Positions 53,697-61,693 of a DNA stretch of 64,000 nucleotides are shown here, in pieces; the first letter of the stretch is position 1, and each line of letters begins with the position of its first letter. Made by a program: the position numbers and the translations under genes. The notes under the pieces were generated by a model that was not told where the DNA came from, did no database searches, and worked only from the letters and a program-made list of their open reading frames with translations. Origin of the DNA: Streptomyces sp. NBC_01754 (GTDB taxonomy: Bacteria; Actinomycetota; Actinomycetes; Streptomycetales; Streptomycetaceae); assembly GCF_035918015.1 (NCBI RefSeq), contig NZ_CP109132.1, positions 6,820,001-6,884,000 of the forward strand, given 5' to 3'.

Positions 53697-53796
53697 TCCG
53701 GCTTCACCAAGATCTGACCGGGTGGTTCTTCTCACCACCCGTCAAGGCCTTATTACGGTCGCGTAAGTCACATTGCACGGTGCAGGATATGTGCTC

Positions 53797-54639
53797 GTGG
53801 CAGACGATTCGAGAAACAGACAGCACAGCATCATCGGGTCGTACGCAGCGATAGGCGACAGCTTCACCGAGGGAGTCGGAGACCCCGGCCCCGACGGGAC
53901 GTTCGTCGGCTGGGCGGACCGTCTCGCGGTCCTCCTCGCAGACCAGCTTCCCGCCACCGGTGGAGCGACGGATCCCGCGGGCGATCCCCACGGGCACTTC
54001 AGGTACGCCAATCTCGCCGTACGCGGACGCCTCCTCGACCAGATCGTCGAGGAGCAGGTGCCCCGTGCCAAGGAGCTGGCCCCGGAGCTGGTGAGCTTCT
54101 GCGCGGGCGGCAACGACATCATCCGTCCCGGTACCGACCCCGACGACGTGGCCGAACGCTTCGAGCGCGCGGTGGCCGACCTGACGCGTTCGGTCGGCAC
54201 CGTCATGGTCACCACCGGGTTCGACACCCGGGGTGTTCCGGTGCTCCGGCACCTGCGTGGCAAGATCGCCACGTACACCGCCCATGTCCGGGCCATCGCC
54301 GACCGCTACGACTGCCCGGTACTGGACCTGTGGTCGCTGCGGTCCGTGCAGGACCGGCGGGCCTGGGACGACGACCGGCTGCACCTCTCGCCCGAGGGAC
54401 ACACCCGGGTGGCGCTGCGGGCCGCCCAGGTGCTCGGCATCGAGGTACCGGCCGATCCCGACCAGGCGTGGCCGCCGCAGGCACAGCGCGGGACCCTCGA
54501 GGTACGGCGCGACGACATCCACTGGGCACGCGAGTACCTCGTCCCGTGGATCGGCCGACGGCTGCGCGGCGAGTCCTCGGGAGACCACGTCGAGGCCAAG
54601 CGGCCGGACCTGCTGCCTCTTCGAGCGCTCAGCCGGTGA
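53797..54639 (+). CDS. SGNH/GDSL hydrolase family protein
   Basis: A 280-residue SGNH hydrolase. Block I is AAIGDSFTEGVGDPG with the nucleophilic Ser, block II Gly region is NLAVRGRLLDQIVE, block III is FCAGGNDIIRPG, and block V is DDRLHLSPEGHTRVAL with Asp and His. Such enzymes deacylate lipids, sugars or wall polymers. I chose the GTG at 53797, following AGGA; GTG 53791 is close. It has no signal peptide, so it is probably cytoplasmic. Its 3' end overlaps the convergent STM4011-like gene by 11 bp. Confidence 0.87.
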   Translation: MADDSRNRQHSIIGSYAAIGDSFTEGVGDPGPDGTFVGWADRLAVLLADQLPATGGATDPAGDPHGHFRYANLAVRGRLLDQIVEEQVPRAKELAPELVSFCAGGNDIIRPGTDPDDVAERFERAVADLTRSVGTVMVTTGFDTRGVPVLRHLRGKIATYTAHVRAIADRYDCPVLDLWSLRSVQDRRAWDDDRLHLSPEGHTRVALRAAQVLGIEVPADPDQAWPPQAQRGTLEVRRDDIHWAREYLVPWIGRRLRGESSGDHVEAKRPDLLPLRALSR

Positions 54640-55612
54640 CGAGGGGGAGCGGCCGCCGGTGCGGCGCACGGCCGACGAGCCCGTCCGGTGCGGGTGCCCG
54701 CACCGGACGGGCGGGTATCCGCTCCAGGACGCCCCCGGCGAAGACGTCGTACAACGGCAGGGACTCCAGGTGCACATAGCCGATGTGGCAGTCGCACACG
54801 GTGAGGGGGCAGCCACGCGGGCCCAGTGAACGCCGGTAGCTGCCGTCGTAGAGATTTCCGAGCTCGGCCCGGACGAAGTGGCAGCGGCGCACCGTACCGT
54901 CACCGTCGACCGAGATCACCGACTCACCGGTCCGGCAGGGCAGCCCGGCCGAGACATGGGGGTGCCTGCTGTAGGCGAACAGCGGGTCCAGAGCGGTCCA
55001 CCGGTCCGCCTCCTCGTCCGTGTAGGTGTGGCCCTCGGCCGCGTTGACCCAGAGGTACACCTCGGACGGCAGCGCGGCCCGGAGCCGTCCGGCCTCCTCC
55101 AGATGGGCCGGGAGCCCCACCACCCCGACGCTGAAGCGGACACCGAGCTCCGACAGCTCCCGGCACCGGCCGAGGAACCTGTCGTACGGCGTCTGGCCCG
55201 GGTGGTACGTGCACCAGAGGGCGGCCTTCTCCCGGTCGGCGCCGGCCAGCCAGCCGGTGCGGCAGCTGAGGTTTGTCTGGACGGCGACCCGGCGGACGTG
55301 CGGCAGCAGCGACAGCTCGACCAGGGCACGCCGGTACCAGGACCGTGTCAGGCCCTCGCCCCACGGGGTGAACAGCACCGAGATCCGGTCACCGGTCTGT
55401 GCGGCGACCCAGGAGGCGAAGCGCTCCAGCGCCGCGCGGTCCGCGCGCAGTTGCTCCCCGCTGTCCCGGCGCTTGGCGAACGGGCAGTAGGGGCAGTCGT
55501 AGTCGCACGAGGCCAGCGGGCCGCGGTAGAGGATCGTCAGGTCCGCGCCGGGTGCCTCCGCGGCCTTCACGGGGGTGGCCGCTCGTTCGGTGGACGCCGG
55601 ATCCGTGCTCAT
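54629..55612 (-). CDS. STM4011 family radical SAM protein
   Basis: A 327-residue radical SAM enzyme; the cluster Cys set is C36, C40 and C43 (LASCDYDCPYCPFAKR). It has TPWGEGLTRSWYRR, TNLSCRTGW and ends with a second Cys-rich part, GCPLTVCDCHIGYVHLE, which may hold another iron-sulfur cluster. I recognise the pattern as the family named after Salmonella STM4011. It is the last gene of the five-gene STM4011-4015-like operon, 8 bp after the STM4012-like gene. The C-terminal 30 residues are Pro/Arg-rich. The reaction is unknown. Confidence 0.85.
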   Translation of the reverse strand: MSTDPASTERAATPVKAAEAPGADLTILYRGPLASCDYDCPYCPFAKRRDSGEQLRADRAALERFASWVAAQTGDRISVLFTPWGEGLTRSWYRRALVELSLLPHVRRVAVQTNLSCRTGWLAGADREKAALWCTYHPGQTPYDRFLGRCRELSELGVRFSVGVVGLPAHLEEAGRLRAALPSEVYLWVNAAEGHTYTDEEADRWTALDPLFAYSRHPHVSAGLPCRTGESVISVDGDGTVRRCHFVRAELGNLYDGSYRRSLGPRGCPLTVCDCHIGYVHLESLPLYDVFAGGVLERIPARPVRAPAPDGLVGRAPHRRPLPLVTG

Positions 55613-55620
55613 CGGGCGGC

Positions 55621-56967
55621 TCACTTGGCCTCGTACGCGGCCATCGCGGCCCGTACGGCGGGGGAGAACAGCTCCGGGCCCAGCGCGTCGGAGTGGGCCA
55701 GACCCTCGGGCGACAGCCGCAGCCGGCCGGGCTCCGCCGATCCGTCCAGCCAGCCGCGCTCCGCGAAGCGGTCCAGCTCGGCCGGGAAGTCGGCGCGCGG
55801 ATCCGTGCCGAACCGCTCGCGGTAGTCGGCCGACAGGAGGCCCTCGGCCTGGAGGAGCGACTGCAGCAGGTGGCGTCTGCGGGCCTCGTCCCCGGTGACG
55901 TACCGCCCGACCTCGGCCCGGGAGAAGTCCTCGGTCGTGGTGAAGCCGTCGATGATGCCGCGGACCTCCCGCGTCTCCACCGCGTAGTCGAAGGAGTAGT
56001 GCAGCGAGGAGGTGTACGAGCGGGCACCGCAGCCGAGCCCGATCATTCCGTCGGTCTGGCAGGCGTGGTCCCCGGGGCCCGCCTGCGGGGCGTCCGCGCG
56101 GCGGAACATGCGCATCGACACCTGCTCGTAGCCGTGGGCCAGGAGATGGTCGCGGCCCGCCCGGTACAGCCGCAGCCGCTGCTCGTCCCACGTGTGGTCC
56201 GGTGCGTCGGCGGCGCCCCGGTGCCGGCCGAGACCCGTCAGCGGGCGTACGTACAAGGGGTAGAGGTAGAACTCCTCCGGGTGCCAGGCCAGGGCGGCGT
56301 CCAGCGAGAACCGCCAGCTCTCCGCCGTCTGCCCGTCGATGCCGTAGATCAGGTCGATGTTGAGGACGGGGACCCGGGCGTCGCGGATGCGGCCCAGGGC
56401 GTCCTCCACCTCCCGGCGGTGCTGCGGCCGGACGGCGGCCCGGGCCTCGGCGTCGACGAAGCTCTGGACGCCGATACTGACGCGGGTGGCGCCGCGGTCG
56501 GCGAGCACCGCCAGCCTCTCCGCCGTCGCGGTCGCCGGAGAGGTCTCCACCGACAGCGGAACGTCCCGCAGATCGGCTCCCATGCGCTTCTCCGCGATGT
56601 CGCAGAGCCGCTCCAGCTCCCCGGCGGTCAGGAAGGTGGGCGTGCCGCCGCCGAACGCGGCGGCGGCGAAACGCACCGGTTCCTCGTCACCCAGCGCGTC
56701 CCGGACGGCCGTGGCCTGCCGGTCCAGGGCGTCGAGGTAGCGCCTGGTCAGCTCGTCCGGTGCGCCGATCCTGGTGAACAGGTTGCAGAAGCCGCAGCGG
56801 ACCTCGCAGAACGGTATGTGGAGGTAGAGGGAGAGCGCGTCCTTGGGTTCGGACGCCCACAGCCCGCTCAGGAGCGGGCGCCCGGCGGGGTGCCCCGCGA
56901 GCGGGCGGTAGGCCGTCTTGTGCGGGTAGGCGTAGACGTAGCTCTGGTACGGCCTGGTACTGGTCAT
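55621..56967 (-). CDS. STM4012 family radical SAM protein (HemN/HemW-like)
   Basis: A 448-residue radical SAM enzyme of the HemN/HemW fold. The Cys set is C54, C58, C61 (IPFCEVRCGFCNLF), with AAFGGGTPTFL, VSIGVQSFVDAEA and MIGLGCGARSY typical of that fold. Despite this likeness it does not carry the features that would make me call it the coproporphyrinogen oxidase of the cell, and it is bound into the STM4011-4015-like operon. Its ATG overlaps the stop of the hydrolase gene (ATGA). Known HemN-like enzymes include methylases and cyclases in natural-product pathways; the substrate is unknown. Confidence 0.85.
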   Translation of the reverse strand: MTSTRPYQSYVYAYPHKTAYRPLAGHPAGRPLLSGLWASEPKDALSLYLHIPFCEVRCGFCNLFTRIGAPDELTRRYLDALDRQATAVRDALGDEEPVRFAAAAFGGGTPTFLTAGELERLCDIAEKRMGADLRDVPLSVETSPATATAERLAVLADRGATRVSIGVQSFVDAEARAAVRPQHRREVEDALGRIRDARVPVLNIDLIYGIDGQTAESWRFSLDAALAWHPEEFYLYPLYVRPLTGLGRHRGAADAPDHTWDEQRLRLYRAGRDHLLAHGYEQVSMRMFRRADAPQAGPGDHACQTDGMIGLGCGARSYTSSLHYSFDYAVETREVRGIIDGFTTTEDFSRAEVGRYVTGDEARRRHLLQSLLQAEGLLSADYRERFGTDPRADFPAELDRFAERGWLDGSAEPGRLRLSPEGLAHSDALGPELFSPAVRAAMAAYEAK

Positions 56968-57833
56968 CGGGAGGCCCCCGCGTCGAGGAAGAAGTGGGCG
57001 TACGGCACGGTCCAGACGGATTCGTGACCCAGCCGGTGACCGGTGTAGCCGTCGTCCCCGTATGCCGTGCCGTGGTCGGAGCAGACGATCGCGAAGCACC
57101 GGCGGCGGCTGCTCACCGCGGCGAAGAGGCGCCCGATGTGCCGGTCCACGTACTCCAGGGCGGCGGCGTGCGTCTCCCTGGAATCGCCCGCGTCGGCGGT
57201 GGCGCCGGGCAGGTGGAACCAGTTGGGCTGGTGCAGGGCCGACACGTTGACGAAGAGGAACAGCCGCTGCTGGGGCGGCAGCCGGGCCACGACGTGCTCG
57301 GCACGGGCCACCTGTTCCTCGAAGGAGGTGGGGGAGGCTACCCCGAACCCCGGTTCCCAGTGGCTCTCCTGGAAGAGGGCGGGCAGCACCGAGCCGAGCG
57401 GAGGACGGCGGTTGAAGAAGCCGACACCGCCGATGCACACGGTGCGGTAGCCGGCACCGGCGAGAGCGGAGGGCAGGTCGGCGGTGTCGTGGACGAACGT
57501 GCCGTCCGCGGTGGACTCGCTGCCCGCGAAACGCGCGGCGAACAGCCGCGGATGCGGGCCGGGAGCGGCCGGCGTCGGCAGGAACCCGGCGAACATCGCC
57601 TGATGGGAGGCGTAGGTGAAGCTGCCCGGCGCGTGCCTCTTCTCCCAGACCCCGCCCGGCAGACGGCGGGCCAGGTTCGGAATGCGTCCGGCGGCGGCGA
57701 GCTCCTCGGCCACGTCGAAGCGCAGGGTGTCCAGGGTGACGAGCAACAGGTCGTCGCTGCCCACCACCGCGTTCATGTCGGGGTCGCGGGTGCCCGGGAC
57801 ACGGGCGGCGGGGTCAGGGGAGAGGGACGGCAC
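56964..57833 (-). CDS. STM4013/SEN3800 family hydrolase (alkaline phosphatase superfamily)
   Basis: A 289-residue hydrolase. The N-terminal LLVTLDTLRFDVA and the later CSDHGTAYGDDGYTGHRLGH are the two metal-binding halves of the alkaline-phosphatase/sulfatase superfamily. The nucleophile is probably Thr or Ser in GSFTYASHQAMFAGF, with no sulfatase Cys-x-Pro-x-Arg motif, so a phosphatase or phosphodiesterase is more likely. I chose the GTG at 57833 because AGGAG stands about six bases upstream; an ATG at 57776 has no ribosome site. It overlaps STM4014 by 20 bp and STM4012 by 4 bp. Confidence 0.83.
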   Translation of the reverse strand: MPSLSPDPAARVPGTRDPDMNAVVGSDDLLLVTLDTLRFDVAEELAAAGRIPNLARRLPGGVWEKRHAPGSFTYASHQAMFAGFLPTPAAPGPHPRLFAARFAGSESTADGTFVHDTADLPSALAGAGYRTVCIGGVGFFNRRPPLGSVLPALFQESHWEPGFGVASPTSFEEQVARAEHVVARLPPQQRLFLFVNVSALHQPNWFHLPGATADAGDSRETHAAALEYVDRHIGRLFAAVSSRRRCFAIVCSDHGTAYGDDGYTGHRLGHESVWTVPYAHFFLDAGASR

Positions 57834-59019
57834 GAAGGCTCCTCGCTCGCTCGTACATGGGCGGCCGGCCTTCGGCGCGGCGCTTTCGCGGCACGGCCCG
57901 CAGGATCGCGGCCACCTGTGCCGCGTAGGTGTCCATCCCCTCCGCACCACTGCCCGGCAGACCGGTCAGACGAGGCAGGAGATCCCCGAAGGCGTTGACC
58001 TCACCGACGGCGAACCGCCGCCAGCCGGTGGCCGGGAGCAGGTCGACACCCACGCACAGGGTGTCAGGGAAGCAGGCGGCGGCCCGCTCGCAGACCGTGA
58101 GCGCCTCGGCCCAACTGCCGCCCGCCGCCTCGGTCGCGGCCCGCACCTCGTCGAGATCGCCGCGTGCTCCGCCCAGGTGCAGATTGGTCATGGGGGAGCG
58201 GCTGGTCCGTACGACGGCGTGCGTCGCCCGGCCGGCCACCACCACGACCCGGAGGTCGGCGGCCCGGCCGCCCCGCACCGATGCCTTCGGCAGCCACCGC
58301 TCGATGTGCAGACCGTCCGGAGCGAGGGCGTCGACCAACCGCGCCACCTCGCCCTCGGTCGTGCACCGGCGCACCCGGAGGGAGTTGAAGAGCCGGCCCG
58401 TCTCGTCCCGCTCCACGGACGTGGTCGCCCGCACCCGGCCGGGCCCGGCCGTCTCCACGGCCAGGACCCCGGAGGCGGACGACCCGTGGGCGAGTTTCAC
58501 GAACGCCCTCGGCATCCGGTGGTCCGCCATCAGCCGGCGTACGTCCGTCCAGTCACGCACCGGTGGCGCGGCCGGCCCGGAGGTGGGCGAGTCGGGTACG
58601 CGTACTCCGGCTGCTCCCAGGACACCGTGGCACAGGCGCTTGTCGAACAGCACCGCGACGTCCTGGGGGCCGTCCAGCAGAACCGCCCCCGCGGCGGCGG
58701 CCGCCCGCTCCACATCCCGTACGGCGGTGATGAAACGGGCGTACCAGAGGGCCGAACCCTCGACCCGGGTCGTGTCCTCCACCCCGCGCAGCAGCCGCTC
58801 CACCTCGGCGTCCTCACCGGGCGAGTCGATCCTGACCCGTTCACCGGGCAGGAAGACCGCCTCGCCCCCCAGCACCCGGCGCCAGGACACGGTGCGCGCC
58901 TCGGGGAGCCCGGCGGCCCGCACCGCGTCCTGGAAGAGGGCGACCCTGCGGTTACCGGGGTTGCCGACGACGGCGAGGCGCGGACCGGTGCTATTCGCCG
59001 GCAACGACATGGCGGGCAC
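57814..59019 (-). CDS. STM4014 family protein (ATP-grasp-like)
   Basis: A 401-residue protein. It starts with a Rossmann-like LAVVGNPGNRRVALFQDAV, and the middle and end have ATP-grasp features: DKRLCHGVLGAAGVRVPDS, AFVKLAHGSSASGVL with the ATP-binding Lys, and GEVNAFGDLLPRLTG with the Mg-binding Glu and Asn. ATP-grasp enzymes ligate a carboxylate to an amine or thiol via acyl phosphate. I recognise the family named STM4014. The GTG at 59019 has GGAGGA close upstream. It sits between the hydrolase and the leucine-rich-repeat gene. Confidence 0.83.
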   Translation of the reverse strand: MPAMSLPANSTGPRLAVVGNPGNRRVALFQDAVRAAGLPEARTVSWRRVLGGEAVFLPGERVRIDSPGEDAEVERLLRGVEDTTRVEGSALWYARFITAVRDVERAAAAAGAVLLDGPQDVAVLFDKRLCHGVLGAAGVRVPDSPTSGPAAPPVRDWTDVRRLMADHRMPRAFVKLAHGSSASGVLAVETAGPGRVRATTSVERDETGRLFNSLRVRRCTTEGEVARLVDALAPDGLHIERWLPKASVRGGRAADLRVVVVAGRATHAVVRTSRSPMTNLHLGGARGDLDEVRAATEAAGGSWAEALTVCERAAACFPDTLCVGVDLLPATGWRRFAVGEVNAFGDLLPRLTGLPGSGAEGMDTYAAQVAAILRAVPRKRRAEGRPPMYERARSLRAVPLP

Positions 59020-59108
59020 CGTCGTCCTCCGGATCCCAGGTGTCCGCCTCGCCGAGTGTCCGCCTCGCCGAGGTCGACGTGGCGTGCTGGACGTCCGTCA
59101 TCGTCCGA

Positions 59109-60068
59109 TCACTCCGCGACCGTGGTGTAGCGGCCCGCGGCGCCCCGGCCGTCCCAGGGCTCGCACCGTTCGGAGACGTCGACCCGGACTCCGTGCGGCT
59201 CCAGCGCCCCGATGACCCGGCGCTCCATCGGCGGGGTCATGAAGTGGTGGTGCAGGTCGAGCGAGGCCAGGTGGGTGAGGGGCTGGCCTTCGAGCAGCGC
59301 GGCCGCCCCCTCGTCACCCAGCGTGCCGGACGAGAGGTCCAGGCTCCGGAGCCGGGCGGCGACGGGGGCCGAGGCCATCGCGGCCGCGATCTCGTTCTCC
59401 AGCTCGCTGTTGCGCAGGCCGAGGTGGTGGAGACCGGGGAAGCGGGTCCCGGAGAGCAGCGGAGCGAGGTCCCGCAGCGTCGCGTCACCGCCGTAGGCGG
59501 ACACACCCAGCCAGAGCTCGAGGTGTTCCAGCGAGGGCAGTTCGCTGTCCACGACCCCGCGCACCACCTCCGCCGGCAGCCCGCCGCTCTCGACGGTCAG
59601 CGTCCGCAGGGCCGCGTGCGTCACCGGCGGGAACACCAGGCCGCTGCCGCCTCGCACACCGAGCTCGGTCAGGGCGGGGAAGGCGGCGAGGAGAGCGGTG
59701 ACGTCCGACTGCTCGATCCAGGAGATCTCGGACTCCTCCATCACCAGGTCTCCGACGAAGACGGCCTCCAGCGAGGTGAGGCGGTCGGCGGCGGCCACGA
59801 CGAGGCCGATGGGATACGAGGAGTCCTGATCGGCGGCCTCACCCCACTGCCCGATGATCAGTGCCCGTACCCCGCCGGGGTCGACGGCTTCGAGGAACGC
59901 GCCGAAGAGCTCTTCCCAGGTGCGCTCCCCCTCGTCGTCGTCGTACGGATCGACACGGATGCGCCAGGCCGCGTCCCCCGCCGCCGGCCGTGCGGCCCCA
60001 CCGGTCTCCTGCTGGAAATCCACGGCCGGGAGGCCGAGCAACGCGTGCAGATGTTCCACACCGGACAT
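59109..60068 (-). CDS. STM4015 family protein (leucine-rich-repeat-like)
   Basis: A 319-residue protein with a repeating pattern, for example LPSLEHLELWLGVSAYGGD, FPGLHHLGLRNSELENEIA, LRSLDLSSGTLGDEG and LASLDLHHHFMTPP, so the C-terminal half is a leucine-rich-repeat solenoid. The N-terminal half has VDPYDDDEGERTWEELFGAF. I recognise the family STM4015. It is the first gene of the operon and has AGGAG before its ATG. A scaffold or substrate-binding role is plausible; no enzyme motif is visible. Confidence 0.83.
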   Translation of the reverse strand: MSGVEHLHALLGLPAVDFQQETGGAARPAAGDAAWRIRVDPYDDDEGERTWEELFGAFLEAVDPGGVRALIIGQWGEAADQDSSYPIGLVVAAADRLTSLEAVFVGDLVMEESEISWIEQSDVTALLAAFPALTELGVRGGSGLVFPPVTHAALRTLTVESGGLPAEVVRGVVDSELPSLEHLELWLGVSAYGGDATLRDLAPLLSGTRFPGLHHLGLRNSELENEIAAAMASAPVAARLRSLDLSSGTLGDEGAAALLEGQPLTHLASLDLHHHFMTPPMERRVIGALEPHGVRVDVSERCEPWDGRGAAGRYTTVAE

Positions 60069-60266: not shown

Positions 60267-60593
60267 GTGTACCGGCAGGGTGATGTGCTGATCATGCCTC
60301 TGGAGGAGTCGGCGGTGCCGTCCCAGTTCCTGAAGGCGCCGGGCGAACTGCGCGACGGGCGGGGGCGGATGGTGCTCGCGCTCGGCGAGGTCACCGGTCA
60401 CGCGCACGCGGTGCGGGGTCCCGGCCGGCTCCTGCGGGAGGCCGGTCCCTTCGGACCGATGCTCCTCCACCTCCCAGAGGGCGGCCGTGTCGTGCACGAG
60501 GAACACGCCGTCATCGCCCTGCCGAAGGGCTGGTTCCGTGTGGTGCGGCAGCGGGAGTACGCACCGGGTGCCGTCCGCATCGTCGCCGACTGA
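60267..60593 (+). CDS. conserved hypothetical protein, partner of the DUF6745 gene
   Basis: A 108-residue small protein. It begins MYRQGDVLIMPLEE and has the conserved-looking pieces LALGEVTGHAHAV, HLPEGGRVVHEEHAVIALPK and VVRQREYAPGAVRIVAD, a pattern I remember as typically paired with DUF6745 proteins. The regular beta pattern and His residues (TGHAHAV, HEEH) suggest a small cupin-like or metal-binding barrel, but this is inference. It starts at GTG 60267 with GGAGGGGGAG upstream. It is divergent from the STM4015-like gene. Confidence 0.7.
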   Translation: MYRQGDVLIMPLEESAVPSQFLKAPGELRDGRGRMVLALGEVTGHAHAVRGPGRLLREAGPFGPMLLHLPEGGRVVHEEHAVIALPKGWFRVVRQREYAPGAVRIVAD

Positions 60594-60691
60594 CGGGCGC
60601 GGACGGTGCGGTGACACGGCGGAGCGCCCGGCACGCGTGCCGGGCGGGTGATGTGTGGTCGGCGGAGACTCGGACGGGGACGGGAACAGCG

Positions 60692-61693
60692 ATGCAGTAC
60701 GTGAACGACTGGCGGGCCGTGGCGGCGGCGACGGGCGCGGCGGACCGGCACGCGGCCGAGGACGGGGTGCGGCTGGCCTACCGCGGCGCCGGGCTCGCCG
60801 AACCGGAGCGGATCGTGTGGGTGGATTCGCCGCGGGCGGCCGTCGAGGCGGTGGAGGAACTGGCCGACGCGGGACGATCGGTGCGTGAGGAGGTACGCAC
60901 CCTGCCCTGGGCCGGGGAGCGCCGCCGGATGTACGACGAGTTGGGCCCGGCCGGCTGGTCCGCCCTGTGGTCCGCCACCGGGGCCCAGCTGTGGGAGACC
61001 ACGGCAGCCCTGGCCGAGCGCATACGGGCGGGGATCGTCACCGGACTCGCCGGCGTGCCCGAGGACGAGTCCCGCGTGCGGCTCGTGCTGCTCGACGCGG
61101 TCCTCGGCCAGCACGACGCGGCCTGGCTCGCCGCCTTCGACGGCCGCGGCGACCGGCTGACCGGACTGGCCCAGGTCGCCAGGAACGCCGGCTGGTGGTG
61201 GCCCTACGAGCGGGCCGTGGTGATCAGCGAGCGGCCGGTGGAGCTCCACCGTGACGAGGCCGGCCGGCTCGACCGGGGAGACGGCCCCGCACTCGCCTAC
61301 CGAGACGGCTTCGCACTCCACGCCTGGCGCGGCATGCCGGTACCGGCCGCGTTCCTCGACGAGTTGGCGGCCCTGACCCCCGAGCGGATACGCGCCGAGG
61401 AGAACGCCGAGCTGCGCCGCGTGATGCTGGAGTACTACGGTTACGACCGCTACCTCGCCGAATCGGGTGCCGAGCCGGTGCACCGGGACGAGACCGGGAT
61501 CCTCTGGCGGATCGCGCTGGACGGCGACGAGGACGTCGTCATGGTCGAAGTCGTCAACTCGACTCCGGAGCCGGACGGTTCATGTCGCACCTACTGGCTG
61601 CGCGTGCCGCCGGCCACGAGGACGGCGAAGGCCGGCGTCGCCTGGACCTTCGGTCTCGACGGTGAGGCGTACGCACCGCTGCGCCAGACCTGA
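60692..61693 (+). CDS. DUF6745 domain-containing protein
   Basis: A 333-residue protein with the features of DUF6745: helix-rich N-terminus, and the marker region ELHRDEAGRLDRGDGPALAY followed by DGFALHAWRGMPVP, where a short motif of the HRDxGxLHxxxGPA type is seen twice (again VHRDETGILWRIAL). These resemble bacterial repeat units used in sensing or binding, but the function is unknown. It lies 98 bp after the small partner gene and probably shares its promoter. The ATG at 60692 is the first with a good upstream purine run. Confidence 0.75.
   Translation: MQYVNDWRAVAAATGAADRHAAEDGVRLAYRGAGLAEPERIVWVDSPRAAVEAVEELADAGRSVREEVRTLPWAGERRRMYDELGPAGWSALWSATGAQLWETTAALAERIRAGIVTGLAGVPEDESRVRLVLLDAVLGQHDAAWLAAFDGRGDRLTGLAQVARNAGWWWPYERAVVISERPVELHRDEAGRLDRGDGPALAYRDGFALHAWRGMPVPAAFLDELAALTPERIRAEENAELRRVMLEYYGYDRYLAESGAEPVHRDETGILWRIALDGDEDVVMVEVVNSTPEPDGSCRTYWLRVPPATRTAKAGVAWTFGLDGEAYAPLRQT

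What the first reader, a model, noticed from the sequence alone, without database searches (positions are those of the whole stretch)
54629..60068. Five-gene STM4011-STM4015-like operon: uncharacterised radical-SAM system
Five minus-strand genes are packed with 4-20 bp overlaps or gaps of under 100 bp: LRR-like (STM4015), ATP-grasp-like (STM4014), AP-superfamily hydrolase (STM4013), HemN-like radical SAM (STM4012) and a second radical SAM (STM4011). A set that spans Salmonella and Streptomyces implies a horizontally spread, self-contained pathway. Two radical steps, a ligase, a phosphohydrolase and a repeat scaffold look like a small-molecule or peptide modification route, with the LRR protein perhaps holding the substrate. 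I know of no assigned product. No precursor peptide gene is visible.
Basis: partly seen in the sequence, partly recalled or inferred. Interest (0 to 1): 0.82.

Follow-up and report, generated by a model that had tools for sequence, protein, structure and literature searches.

The report
Leucine-rich carrier protein radical-SAM operon
A five-gene bacterial operon of unknown function, found from Streptomyces to Salmonella, makes a leucine-rich-repeat protein that almost always ends in the same amino acid, glutamate, which suggests that the neighbouring enzymes attach and build something on that end.

Summary
Observation confirmed. Five minus-strand genes (54629-60068) each pass the NCBIfam cut-off for STM4015, 4014, 4013, 4012 and 4011. 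All five occur in the same order in 78 of 80 related loci (57 of the 80 are Paenibacillaceae).

New finding: the last residue of STM4015 is glutamate in 93 of 93 proteins from the loci and in 299 of 303 database proteins that reach the tail. STM4014 is an ATP-grasp enzyme; its profile finds LysX first among solved structures, almost tied with a biotin carboxylase, then RimK. In Streptomycetaceae the glutamate is kept in 106 of 109 copies from STM4011-positive genomes but in 5 of 10 genomes without an intact STM4011.

Most likely STM4015 is the missing substrate: a leucine-rich carrier that STM4014 loads at its terminal glutamate and that the other enzymes then act on. This is inferred; ligation, chemistry and product are untested. 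It is not an amino-group-carrier or pearlin system by their defining features.

The parts
59109..60068 (-). STM4015: LRR protein, 319 aa; proposed carrier/substrate
   Evidence: NF038076, 384 bits; AlphaFold2 model from 44 sequences, mean pLDDT 95, alternating strands and helices; 33 columns conserved in 97% or more of 93 sequences, 32 of them before the last residue, including E114, S116, W117
59109..59138 (-). C-terminal tail of STM4015 (AGRYTTVAE, then stop): terminal Glu319 after an acidic linker
   Evidence: terminal E in 93 of 93, 299 of 303 that reach the tail, 326 of 351 when truncated and hybrid entries are counted too; mean net charge of the last 25 residues -6.8
57814..59019 (-). 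STM4014: ATP-grasp enzyme, 401 aa (GTG start), proposed ligase
   Evidence: NF038074, 457 bits; profile A2: 1uc8 'lysine biosynthesis enzyme' 1.8e-5, biotin carboxylase 9yx0 2.0e-5, 3vpd 3.1e-5, RimK 5zct 2.6e-4; Pfam ATP-grasp families in relatives, none at 0.001 for the window protein
56964..57776 (-). STM4013: alkaline-phosphatase-superfamily hydrolase/transferase, 270 aa
   Evidence: NF038075, 418 bits; PF00884 7.1e-11; D16, T54, D234, H235, H247 conserved in 97% or more of 89
55621..56967 (-). STM4012: HemN-like radical SAM enzyme, 448 aa
   Evidence: NF006067, 633 bits; PF04055 and PF06969 HemN_C; HemN 1olt 1.3e-25, NocN 9p2u 1.6e-15
54629..55612 (-). STM4011: radical SAM enzyme with SPASM/Twitch-like C-terminal domain, 327 aa
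   Evidence: NF038073, 415 bits; CX3CX2C plus C226, C244, C268, C273, C275 conserved in 97% or more of 51; C-terminal part matches SkfB 6efn 3.2e-4; PF13186 only 0.07
60267..60593 (+). 108-aa protein with conserved GHxH and HxEH (possible metal site), divergent partner
   Evidence: no Pfam family; 25 invariant positions in 6 aligned homologues; paired with DUF6745 at this operon
60611..61693 (+). DUF6745 protein, divergent partner
   Evidence: PF20530 1.1e-117; strong form in 57 of 150 genomes, 56 of them STM4011-positive; 14 STM4011-positive genomes lack it

Best explanation
STM4015 is a proteinaceous carrier: a leucine-rich-repeat domain with an acidic C-terminal arm that ends in glutamate. 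STM4014, an ATP-grasp enzyme, activates a carboxylate of that terminal Glu (alpha or gamma) with ATP and joins it to the amino group of a small molecule, probably an amino acid. The LRR domain and tail then present the tethered group to STM4011 and STM4012 (one SPASM-like and one HemN-like radical SAM enzyme, so two radical steps, for example oxidation, cross-linking or methylation) and to STM4013 (phosphate transfer or hydrolysis). In the enterobacterial and Bacteroides loci read here a HAD phosphatase takes part as well. Shown: gene content, conserved order, the near-invariant C-terminal Glu, that STM4014 is an ATP-grasp enzyme, and an association between tail retention and pathway presence. 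Inferred: that ligation happens at Glu, the order of steps, and whether the product is released or stays as a modified LRR protein.
For: Terminal Glu: 93 of 93 in 10 plasmid-record loci plus the scan loci; 299 of 303 database proteins that reach the tail, although Bacteroidales, enterobacterial and Streptomyces tails otherwise differ (WYYPMITE, IYMNAMYTE, WRYVAVGE). It is not a gene-overlap artefact: both codons are used (GAG 48, GAA 44), also in the 37 copies whose STM4014 start lies 5 bp or more downstream. Ligase: the top PDB profile hit of STM4014 is LysX (1uc8), with 3vpd and RimK also in the list. LysX joins an amino group to the gamma-carboxyl of the C-terminal Glu of LysW, and an E54A mutant of the homologue ArgW is an arginine auxotroph (PMC10433800, passages). 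In trans: three distal paralogues whose bodies are 50-57% identical to the operon copy of the same genome keep the tail (ERYVAAAE, DRYVSAGE, TRYVAVSE); of 13 distal copies read, 10 end in Glu. Relaxation: Glu in 106 of 109 copies from STM4011-positive genomes of the 150-genome genus sample (plus the window) against 0 of 3 genomes of that sample without an intact STM4011 (Fisher 8.8e-5), or 5 of 10 when the 394-genome family sample is added (Fisher 6.9e-5; 2.4e-4 with the related tail-less clade counted once on each side). None of these tests is corrected for phylogeny. No other precursor: no small ORF family shared by three or more taxa in 15 loci. Links: STM4014-STM4013 in one ORF in Embleya L019; STM4011-HAD in one ORF in Bacteroides L015.
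Against: No experiment and no structure of the complex. The LysX/LysW recognition motifs are absent (GSWGR 0 of 84, EDWGE 0 of 93). The tail as a whole is little more conserved than the body (mean modal fraction 0.69 against 0.63, aligned linker 0.57): Glu319 and the Arg at -7 (0.97) stand out, and many body positions are equally invariant. The model gives the tail high confidence (pLDDT 91-92 for residues 301-319), so its conservation may be partly structural. Five of ten orphan proteins keep Glu without the pathway, and three distal copies in STM4011-positive genomes (L138, L139, L151) have lost it. L135, L137, L138 and L139 are one clade, 66-81% identical. The positive set came from the genus sample only, while seven of the ten negative genomes came from the family sample. 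No protease or amidase for release is among the genes.
Confidence: 0.42

Rival explanations
1. RiPP-like: STM4015 is a precursor with a very large LRR leader. The radical SAM enzymes modify the tail residues themselves (W/Y, R, Y), and the tail is excised as a cofactor-like product, as with PQQ or mycofactocin (recalled).
For: STM4011 has a SPASM/Twitch-type domain like SkfB, and STM4012 is nearest to HemN and the radical SAM methyltransferase NocN among solved structures. The tail is short, and STM4015 is tandemly duplicated in L012, L018, L020, L022 and L096.
Against: The aromatic and Arg residues are not invariant: enterobacterial and many other database tails read IYMNAMYTE, EYPYPILTE and so on. 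Only the terminal Glu and roughly [PA/V]-x-hydrophobic-[T/G/S/A] are kept. No protease is among the genes, and an ATP-grasp partner would need another role.
Confidence: 0.2
2. The modified LRR protein is itself the end product. STM4014 adds one or more amino acids to the acidic tail, as RimK does to ribosomal protein S6, and the other enzymes adjust the modification to switch the binding of the LRR domain.
For: PF08443 RimK matches 2 of 47 STM4014 relatives, RimK 5zct and 4iwx are profile hits, and the tail is acidic (mean net charge -6.8). Many Bacteroidales members carry an N-terminal WGR domain (precomputed PF05406).
Against: Two radical SAM enzymes and a phosphate enzyme are more chemistry than a polyglutamate tag needs.
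Confidence: 0.16
3. The tail is only a docking tag: the LRR protein is a scaffold, and the enzymes bind the free C-terminal Glu without modifying it while working on a diffusible substrate.
For: It explains a free C-terminus of constant residue and tails kept in distal paralogues.
Against: It leaves the ATP-grasp partner without a link to the tail.
Confidence: 0.13
4. The tail is a structural C-cap of the LRR domain and has no catalytic meaning.
For: The model is confident over the tail, and half of the orphan proteins keep it.
Against: A cap does not require the chain to stop at one residue in 299 of 303 proteins, and orphan proteins with good LRR profile scores have lost the tail.
Confidence: 0.09

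Closest known systems
LysW/LysX and ArgW/ArgX amino-group carrier protein (AmCP) pathways
   Same: Carrier whose last residue is Glu; an ATP-grasp partner whose first PDB profile hit is LysX; acidic C-terminal arm.
   Different: Carrier is a ~320-aa LRR protein, not a ~54-aa zinc protein; no EDWGE, no GSWGR; radical SAM and phosphate enzymes instead of LysZ/Y/J/K.
Pearlin pathways (TglA/TglB, TmoA/TmoB)
   Same: Small molecule built at the C-terminus of a gene-encoded carrier, with radical SAM chemistry in the tmo case (PMC9303977, passages).
   Different: Pearlins use a tRNA-dependent PEARL ligase and a carrier peptide and release the product with a protease; none of these is among the seven genes.
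RimK / ribosomal protein S6 modification
   Same: ATP-grasp enzyme acting on a protein with Glu (listing and abstract starts).
   Different: Substrate would be an operon-encoded LRR protein; further radical SAM steps.
Radical SAM RiPP systems with SPASM enzymes (SkfB; PQQ and mycofactocin recalled)
   Same: SPASM-like radical SAM enzyme; conserved end of the putative precursor.
   Different: No small precursor peptide found; tail residues other than the terminal Glu vary.
NCBIfam families STM4011 to STM4015 (NF038073, NF006067, NF038075, NF038074, NF038076)
   Same: The window proteins are members.
   Different: The family names carry no function; the terminal Glu and the DUF6745 pair are not in the passages seen of the two papers found by locus name.

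Membership tests
STM4011-4015 cassette (NCBIfam) | each protein exceeds its curated cut-off | tested here: met
   5 of 5
STM4011-4015 cassette (NCBIfam) | five genes adjacent in the order 4015-4014-4013-4012-4011 | tested here: met
   window; 78 of 80 scanned loci
Amino-group carrier protein pathway (LysW/LysX) | carrier ends in Glu | tested here: met
   93 of 93; 299 of 303 that reach the tail
Amino-group carrier protein pathway (LysW/LysX) | EDWGE motif in the carrier | tested here: not met
   0 of 93
Amino-group carrier protein pathway (LysW/LysX) | LysX-type ATP-grasp ligase | tested here: inconclusive
   LysX is the first PDB profile hit but nearly tied with a biotin carboxylase
Amino-group carrier protein pathway (LysW/LysX) | GSWGR motif in the ligase | tested here: not met
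   0 of 84; the commonest loops read GS-x-A-x-G
Amino-group carrier protein pathway (LysW/LysX) | zinc-binding Cys residues in the carrier | tested here: not met
   no Cys among the columns conserved in 97% or more of 93
Amino-group carrier protein pathway (LysW/LysX) | ligation of a substrate amine to the terminal Glu | not testable with these tools
   needs enzyme assay and mass spectrometry
Pearlin | PEARL (tRNA-dependent) ligase | tested here: not met
   no such match among the seven genes (NCBIfam and Pfam for five, Pfam for two)
Radical SAM RiPP | radical SAM enzyme with SPASM-type domain | tested here: met
   STM4011 profile: SkfB 3.2e-4, five conserved C-terminal Cys; PF13186 only 0.07 for the window protein
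Radical SAM RiPP | dedicated small precursor peptide | tested here: not met
   no small ORF (20-130 aa, within 2.5 kb, outside the known genes) shared by three or more taxa in 15 loci
Radical SAM RiPP | RRE (precursor-recognition) domain | not tested
   no search for RRE was run
RimK family | RimK-type ATP-grasp domain | tested here: inconclusive
   PF08443 in 2 of 47 relatives, not in the window protein; PDB profile hits 5zct and 4iwx

The most novel reading that the evidence does not exclude
The operon makes a conserved, cofactor-like small molecule of unknown structure on the C-terminal glutamate of a leucine-rich-repeat carrier protein. This would be a third kind of gene-encoded amide carrier, beside LysW-type AmCPs and pearlin peptides, spread over at least five phyla. 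Streptomycetes would run one enzyme set on several carriers of different LRR body but the same tail.
Probability: 0.28. Interest if true: 0.9.

Novelty: new variant of a known kind. Interest (0 to 1): 0.67.

Why it matters
The five families are common (STM4011 over cut-off in 177 of 394 Streptomycetaceae genomes; DNA related to STM4013-4011 in 154 of 5,426 E. coli genomes), yet no function is named for them in the papers searched. The near-invariant terminal glutamate gives a precise, testable entry point: which residue, which enzyme first, and which assay. It could reveal a new carrier-tethered pathway and its product.

Tried and rejected
Conserved small precursor peptide: 787 small ORFs outside the known genes in 15 representative loci gave no family shared by three or more taxa. 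The unfiltered version returned mostly shadow ORFs inside the genes and was discarded.

DUF6745 as a second tail substrate: its C-terminus (Y.P..(Q/E)T or EA in 22 of 22 linked proteins) looked similar, but seven unlinked DUF6745 proteins also end in Y..L.R(R/A)T, so the end is probably a domain feature.

Terminal Glu as a by-product of overlap with the STM4014 start: rejected.

Defence system: only one weak PADLOC match, of STM4012 (3.5e-6, residues 155-239). Phage origin: PHROGs matched only the 108-aa and DUF6745 proteins, weakly; STM4012 was not submitted.

The 108-aa protein has no solved relative by profile. A paper search for radical SAM + leucine-rich repeat + ATP-grasp + precursor found 0. 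A looser one listed 14, none about this operon by title.

Rows dropped before counts. STM4011-positive set (109 copies, one of them a fragment in G309): the broken operon of G262 (L152) was left out; L151, under the family cut-off, was kept as a loss. STM4011-negative set (10): G350, with a broken STM4011, an intact STM4014 and a kept tail, was left out, as were G485 and G669, whose matches are under 33 bits. STM4012 and STM4013 were sought in the ten only within the fetched stretches. Of 351 database proteins, 326 end in Glu; the 303 are those that pass a crude length rule, and its four exceptions are three truncated or hybrid entries and P0188 (YPYIN). The three protein searches list at most 120 hits each. 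One search drops proteins of unusual length and those without a clear start, so STM4011 counts rest on 51.
Full report
What is there. The window lies in a Streptomyces-type genome (contig 1, 6820001-6884000; the genus follows from the named relatives). From the sequence, STM4015 is followed by an 89-bp gap, STM4014 by 37 bp, STM4013 and STM4012 share ATGA, and STM4012 and STM4011 are 8 bp apart. Upstream, 198 bp from the STM4015 start, two genes run the other way: a 108-aa protein (60267-60593) with no Pfam family and a DUF6745 protein (60611-61693; PF20530, 1.1e-117). On the far side a GDSL hydrolase gene (53773-54639) converges and overlaps the end of STM4011 by 11 bp.

How conserved it is. 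A protein search of the plasmid collection found STM4011 in 13 records of 8 genera, and ten of these loci were fetched. With profiles built from the first loci, all five genes were found in the same order in 78 of these 80. L080 lacks STM4015 and STM4014, the match in L084 starts near a contig end, STM4012 of L086 is in two pieces, and STM4014 of L081 is short. Complete operons occur in Actinomycetota, Bacillota, Pseudomonadota (Methylobacterium, Undibacterium, Salmonella), Deinococcota and one cyanobacterial MAG (L099). The Bacteroides plasmid copy L015 has only remnants of STM4013 and STM4012, and an Armatimonadetes MAG (L084) shows only part. Seventeen of the 20 actinobacterial scan loci hold the DUF6745/108-aa pair, as do 6 of the 10 plasmid loci. 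In 150 Streptomyces genomes STM4011 and STM4015 are both over cut-off in 68, STM4011 alone in 2 and STM4015 alone in 3. Strong DUF6745 is in 57 genomes, 56 of them STM4011-positive; the other, G332, holds an STM4011 fragment next to it, and 14 STM4011-positive genomes lack DUF6745. Of 5,426 E. coli genomes, 154 hold the STM4013-4011 part, all on chromosomes. In the one read, the operon lies between ompL and typA with a HAD phosphatase gene as sixth member; the Salmonella record L014 has the same neighbours.

What the proteins are. STM4014 has no Pfam match at 0.001 in the window itself, but relatives match ATP-grasp families (PF14397 in 11, PF02655 in 10, PF14398 in 5 and PF08443 RimK in 2 of 47). 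A nine-sequence profile finds 1uc8 first among solved structures (named 'lysine biosynthesis enzyme'; LysX by recall; 1.8e-5), then 1uc9, a biotin carboxylase (2.0e-5), 3vpd and RimK; D-Ala ligases follow. The LysX lead is thin. STM4011 has CX3CX2C and five conserved C-terminal cysteines, and its C-terminal part matches SkfB. STM4012 is HemN-like with a HemN_C domain. STM4013 belongs to the alkaline-phosphatase superfamily. By position, T54 would be the nucleophile and D16, D234, H235 and H247 metal ligands; this is recalled knowledge of the superfamily applied to conserved residues.

The key observation. STM4015 is an LRR protein (AlphaFold2 model, mean pLDDT 95). Its last residue is Glu in 93 of 93 proteins from the loci, in all 120 Streptomyces hits listed, and in 299 of 303 database proteins that reach the tail; counting every listed database protein, truncated ones included, it is 326 of 351. 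The residues just before are less strict: in the loci, [WY]R[YF]x[AS][LVI][TGS]E is typical, but enterobacterial tails read IYMNAMYTE and Bacteroidales tails WYYPMITE. Before the tail comes a variable acidic linker (counted from the end, the commonest residue at -13 to -25 never exceeds 49%; mean net charge of the last 25 residues -6.8). In the alignment the tail as a whole is only slightly more conserved than the body (0.69 against 0.63) and 32 earlier columns are also conserved at 97% or more. What is unusual is that the invariant residue is the very last one. The Glu is not forced by gene overlap.

Test against pathway loss. In Streptomycetaceae I read 109 STM4015 C-termini from STM4011-positive genomes of the genus sample: 41 in L105-L134, 54 in L174-L211, the window, and 13 copies outside the operon. 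Of these, 106 end in Glu. Ten genomes have STM4015 over cut-off and no intact STM4011: three in the genus sample (G222, G263, G287) and seven more in the family sample (G345, G361, G394, G458, G463, G472, G656). None of the ten has STM4014 over cut-off. Five keep Glu (G345, G361, G394, G463, G656) and five have lost it. Fisher p is 8.8e-5 within the genus sample (106 of 109 against 0 of 3), 6.9e-5 for 5 of 10, and 2.4e-4 with the related clade counted once on each side. The result is suggestive, not clean: three copies outside the operon in STM4011-positive genomes have lost the Glu, half of the orphans keep it, four of the tail-less proteins form one clade, and the samples are unequal. In the other direction, three paralogues with bodies 50-57% identical to the operon copy keep the tail, as expected if one enzyme set recognises the tail on several carriers.

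Mechanism. LysX links the amino group of alpha-aminoadipate to the gamma-carboxyl of the C-terminal Glu of LysW, and replacing that Glu in ArgW makes the strain an arginine auxotroph (PMC10433800, passages). Pearlin pathways build amino-acid-derived products on the C-terminus of a carrier peptide, and the authors compare this with AmCPs (PMC9303977, passages). An ATP-grasp enzyme next to an LRR protein with a near-obligatory C-terminal Glu fits the same logic. I therefore propose that STM4014 loads a small amine on STM4015 and that STM4011, STM4012 and STM4013 modify it there. The single ORFs STM4014-STM4013 (Embleya L019) and STM4011-HAD (Bacteroides L015) support shared function and suggest phosphate chemistry. 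A separate STM4013-like gene stands beside a radical SAM protein, a P-loop kinase-like protein and a NUDIX-like protein in Kitasatospora L017 (judged by eye), and beside a NUDIX gene in S. albidoflavus L016; this also fits phosphorylated small molecules. What is loaded, what is made and how it is released are unknown.

Relation to known kinds. It may work like an AmCP or pearlin system but is a member of neither: EDWGE and GSWGR are absent, the carrier has no conserved cysteines, and no PEARL is among the genes. The novelty claim is narrow. The five families were already named; in the library of papers, locus or family names gave three papers, of which two were opened at the passages and only list the genes in tables and the third was not opened. 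DUF6745 gave none. I did not see the terminal Glu described in these passages, but most subscription papers are not held.

Noticed in passing
window 60267-61693: Divergent pair: 108-aa GHxH/HxEH protein and DUF6745 protein, strongly co-occurring with the operon; in Deinococcus and Methylobacterium the DUF6745 protein has an LRR-like N-terminal part (by eye).
   Followed up: partly
L017:4768-8187 and L016:6693-8264: STM4013-like hydrolase in a different setting: next to a radical SAM protein, a P-loop kinase-like protein and a NUDIX-like protein (L017, by eye), and next to a NUDIX gene and a gene annotated lasso peptide B2 (L016).
   Followed up: no
L019:3300-5435: STM4014 and STM4013 lie in one ORF in an Embleya plasmid.
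   Followed up: no
L015:7965-9530, L014:8834-9568, L219:7900-8598: STM4011 and a HAD phosphatase domain lie in one ORF in a Bacteroides plasmid; a HAD phosphatase gene follows STM4011 in the Salmonella and E. coli records read.
   Followed up: partly
database proteins P0121-P0240: Many Bacteroidales-type STM4015 proteins carry an N-terminal WGR domain (precomputed PF05406) before the LRR region.
   Followed up: no
L135, L137, L138, L139: A clade of STM4015 proteins outside the operon in which three of four tails end in ISVGPLTY-like sequence instead of Glu; their partners, if any, are unknown.
   Followed up: partly
H29 (NZ_OZ546938.1:2657457-2661124): An E. coli copy of the operon has an IS1 transposase annotated within the matched stretch, beside STM4012 and a second radical SAM entry.
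   Followed up: no
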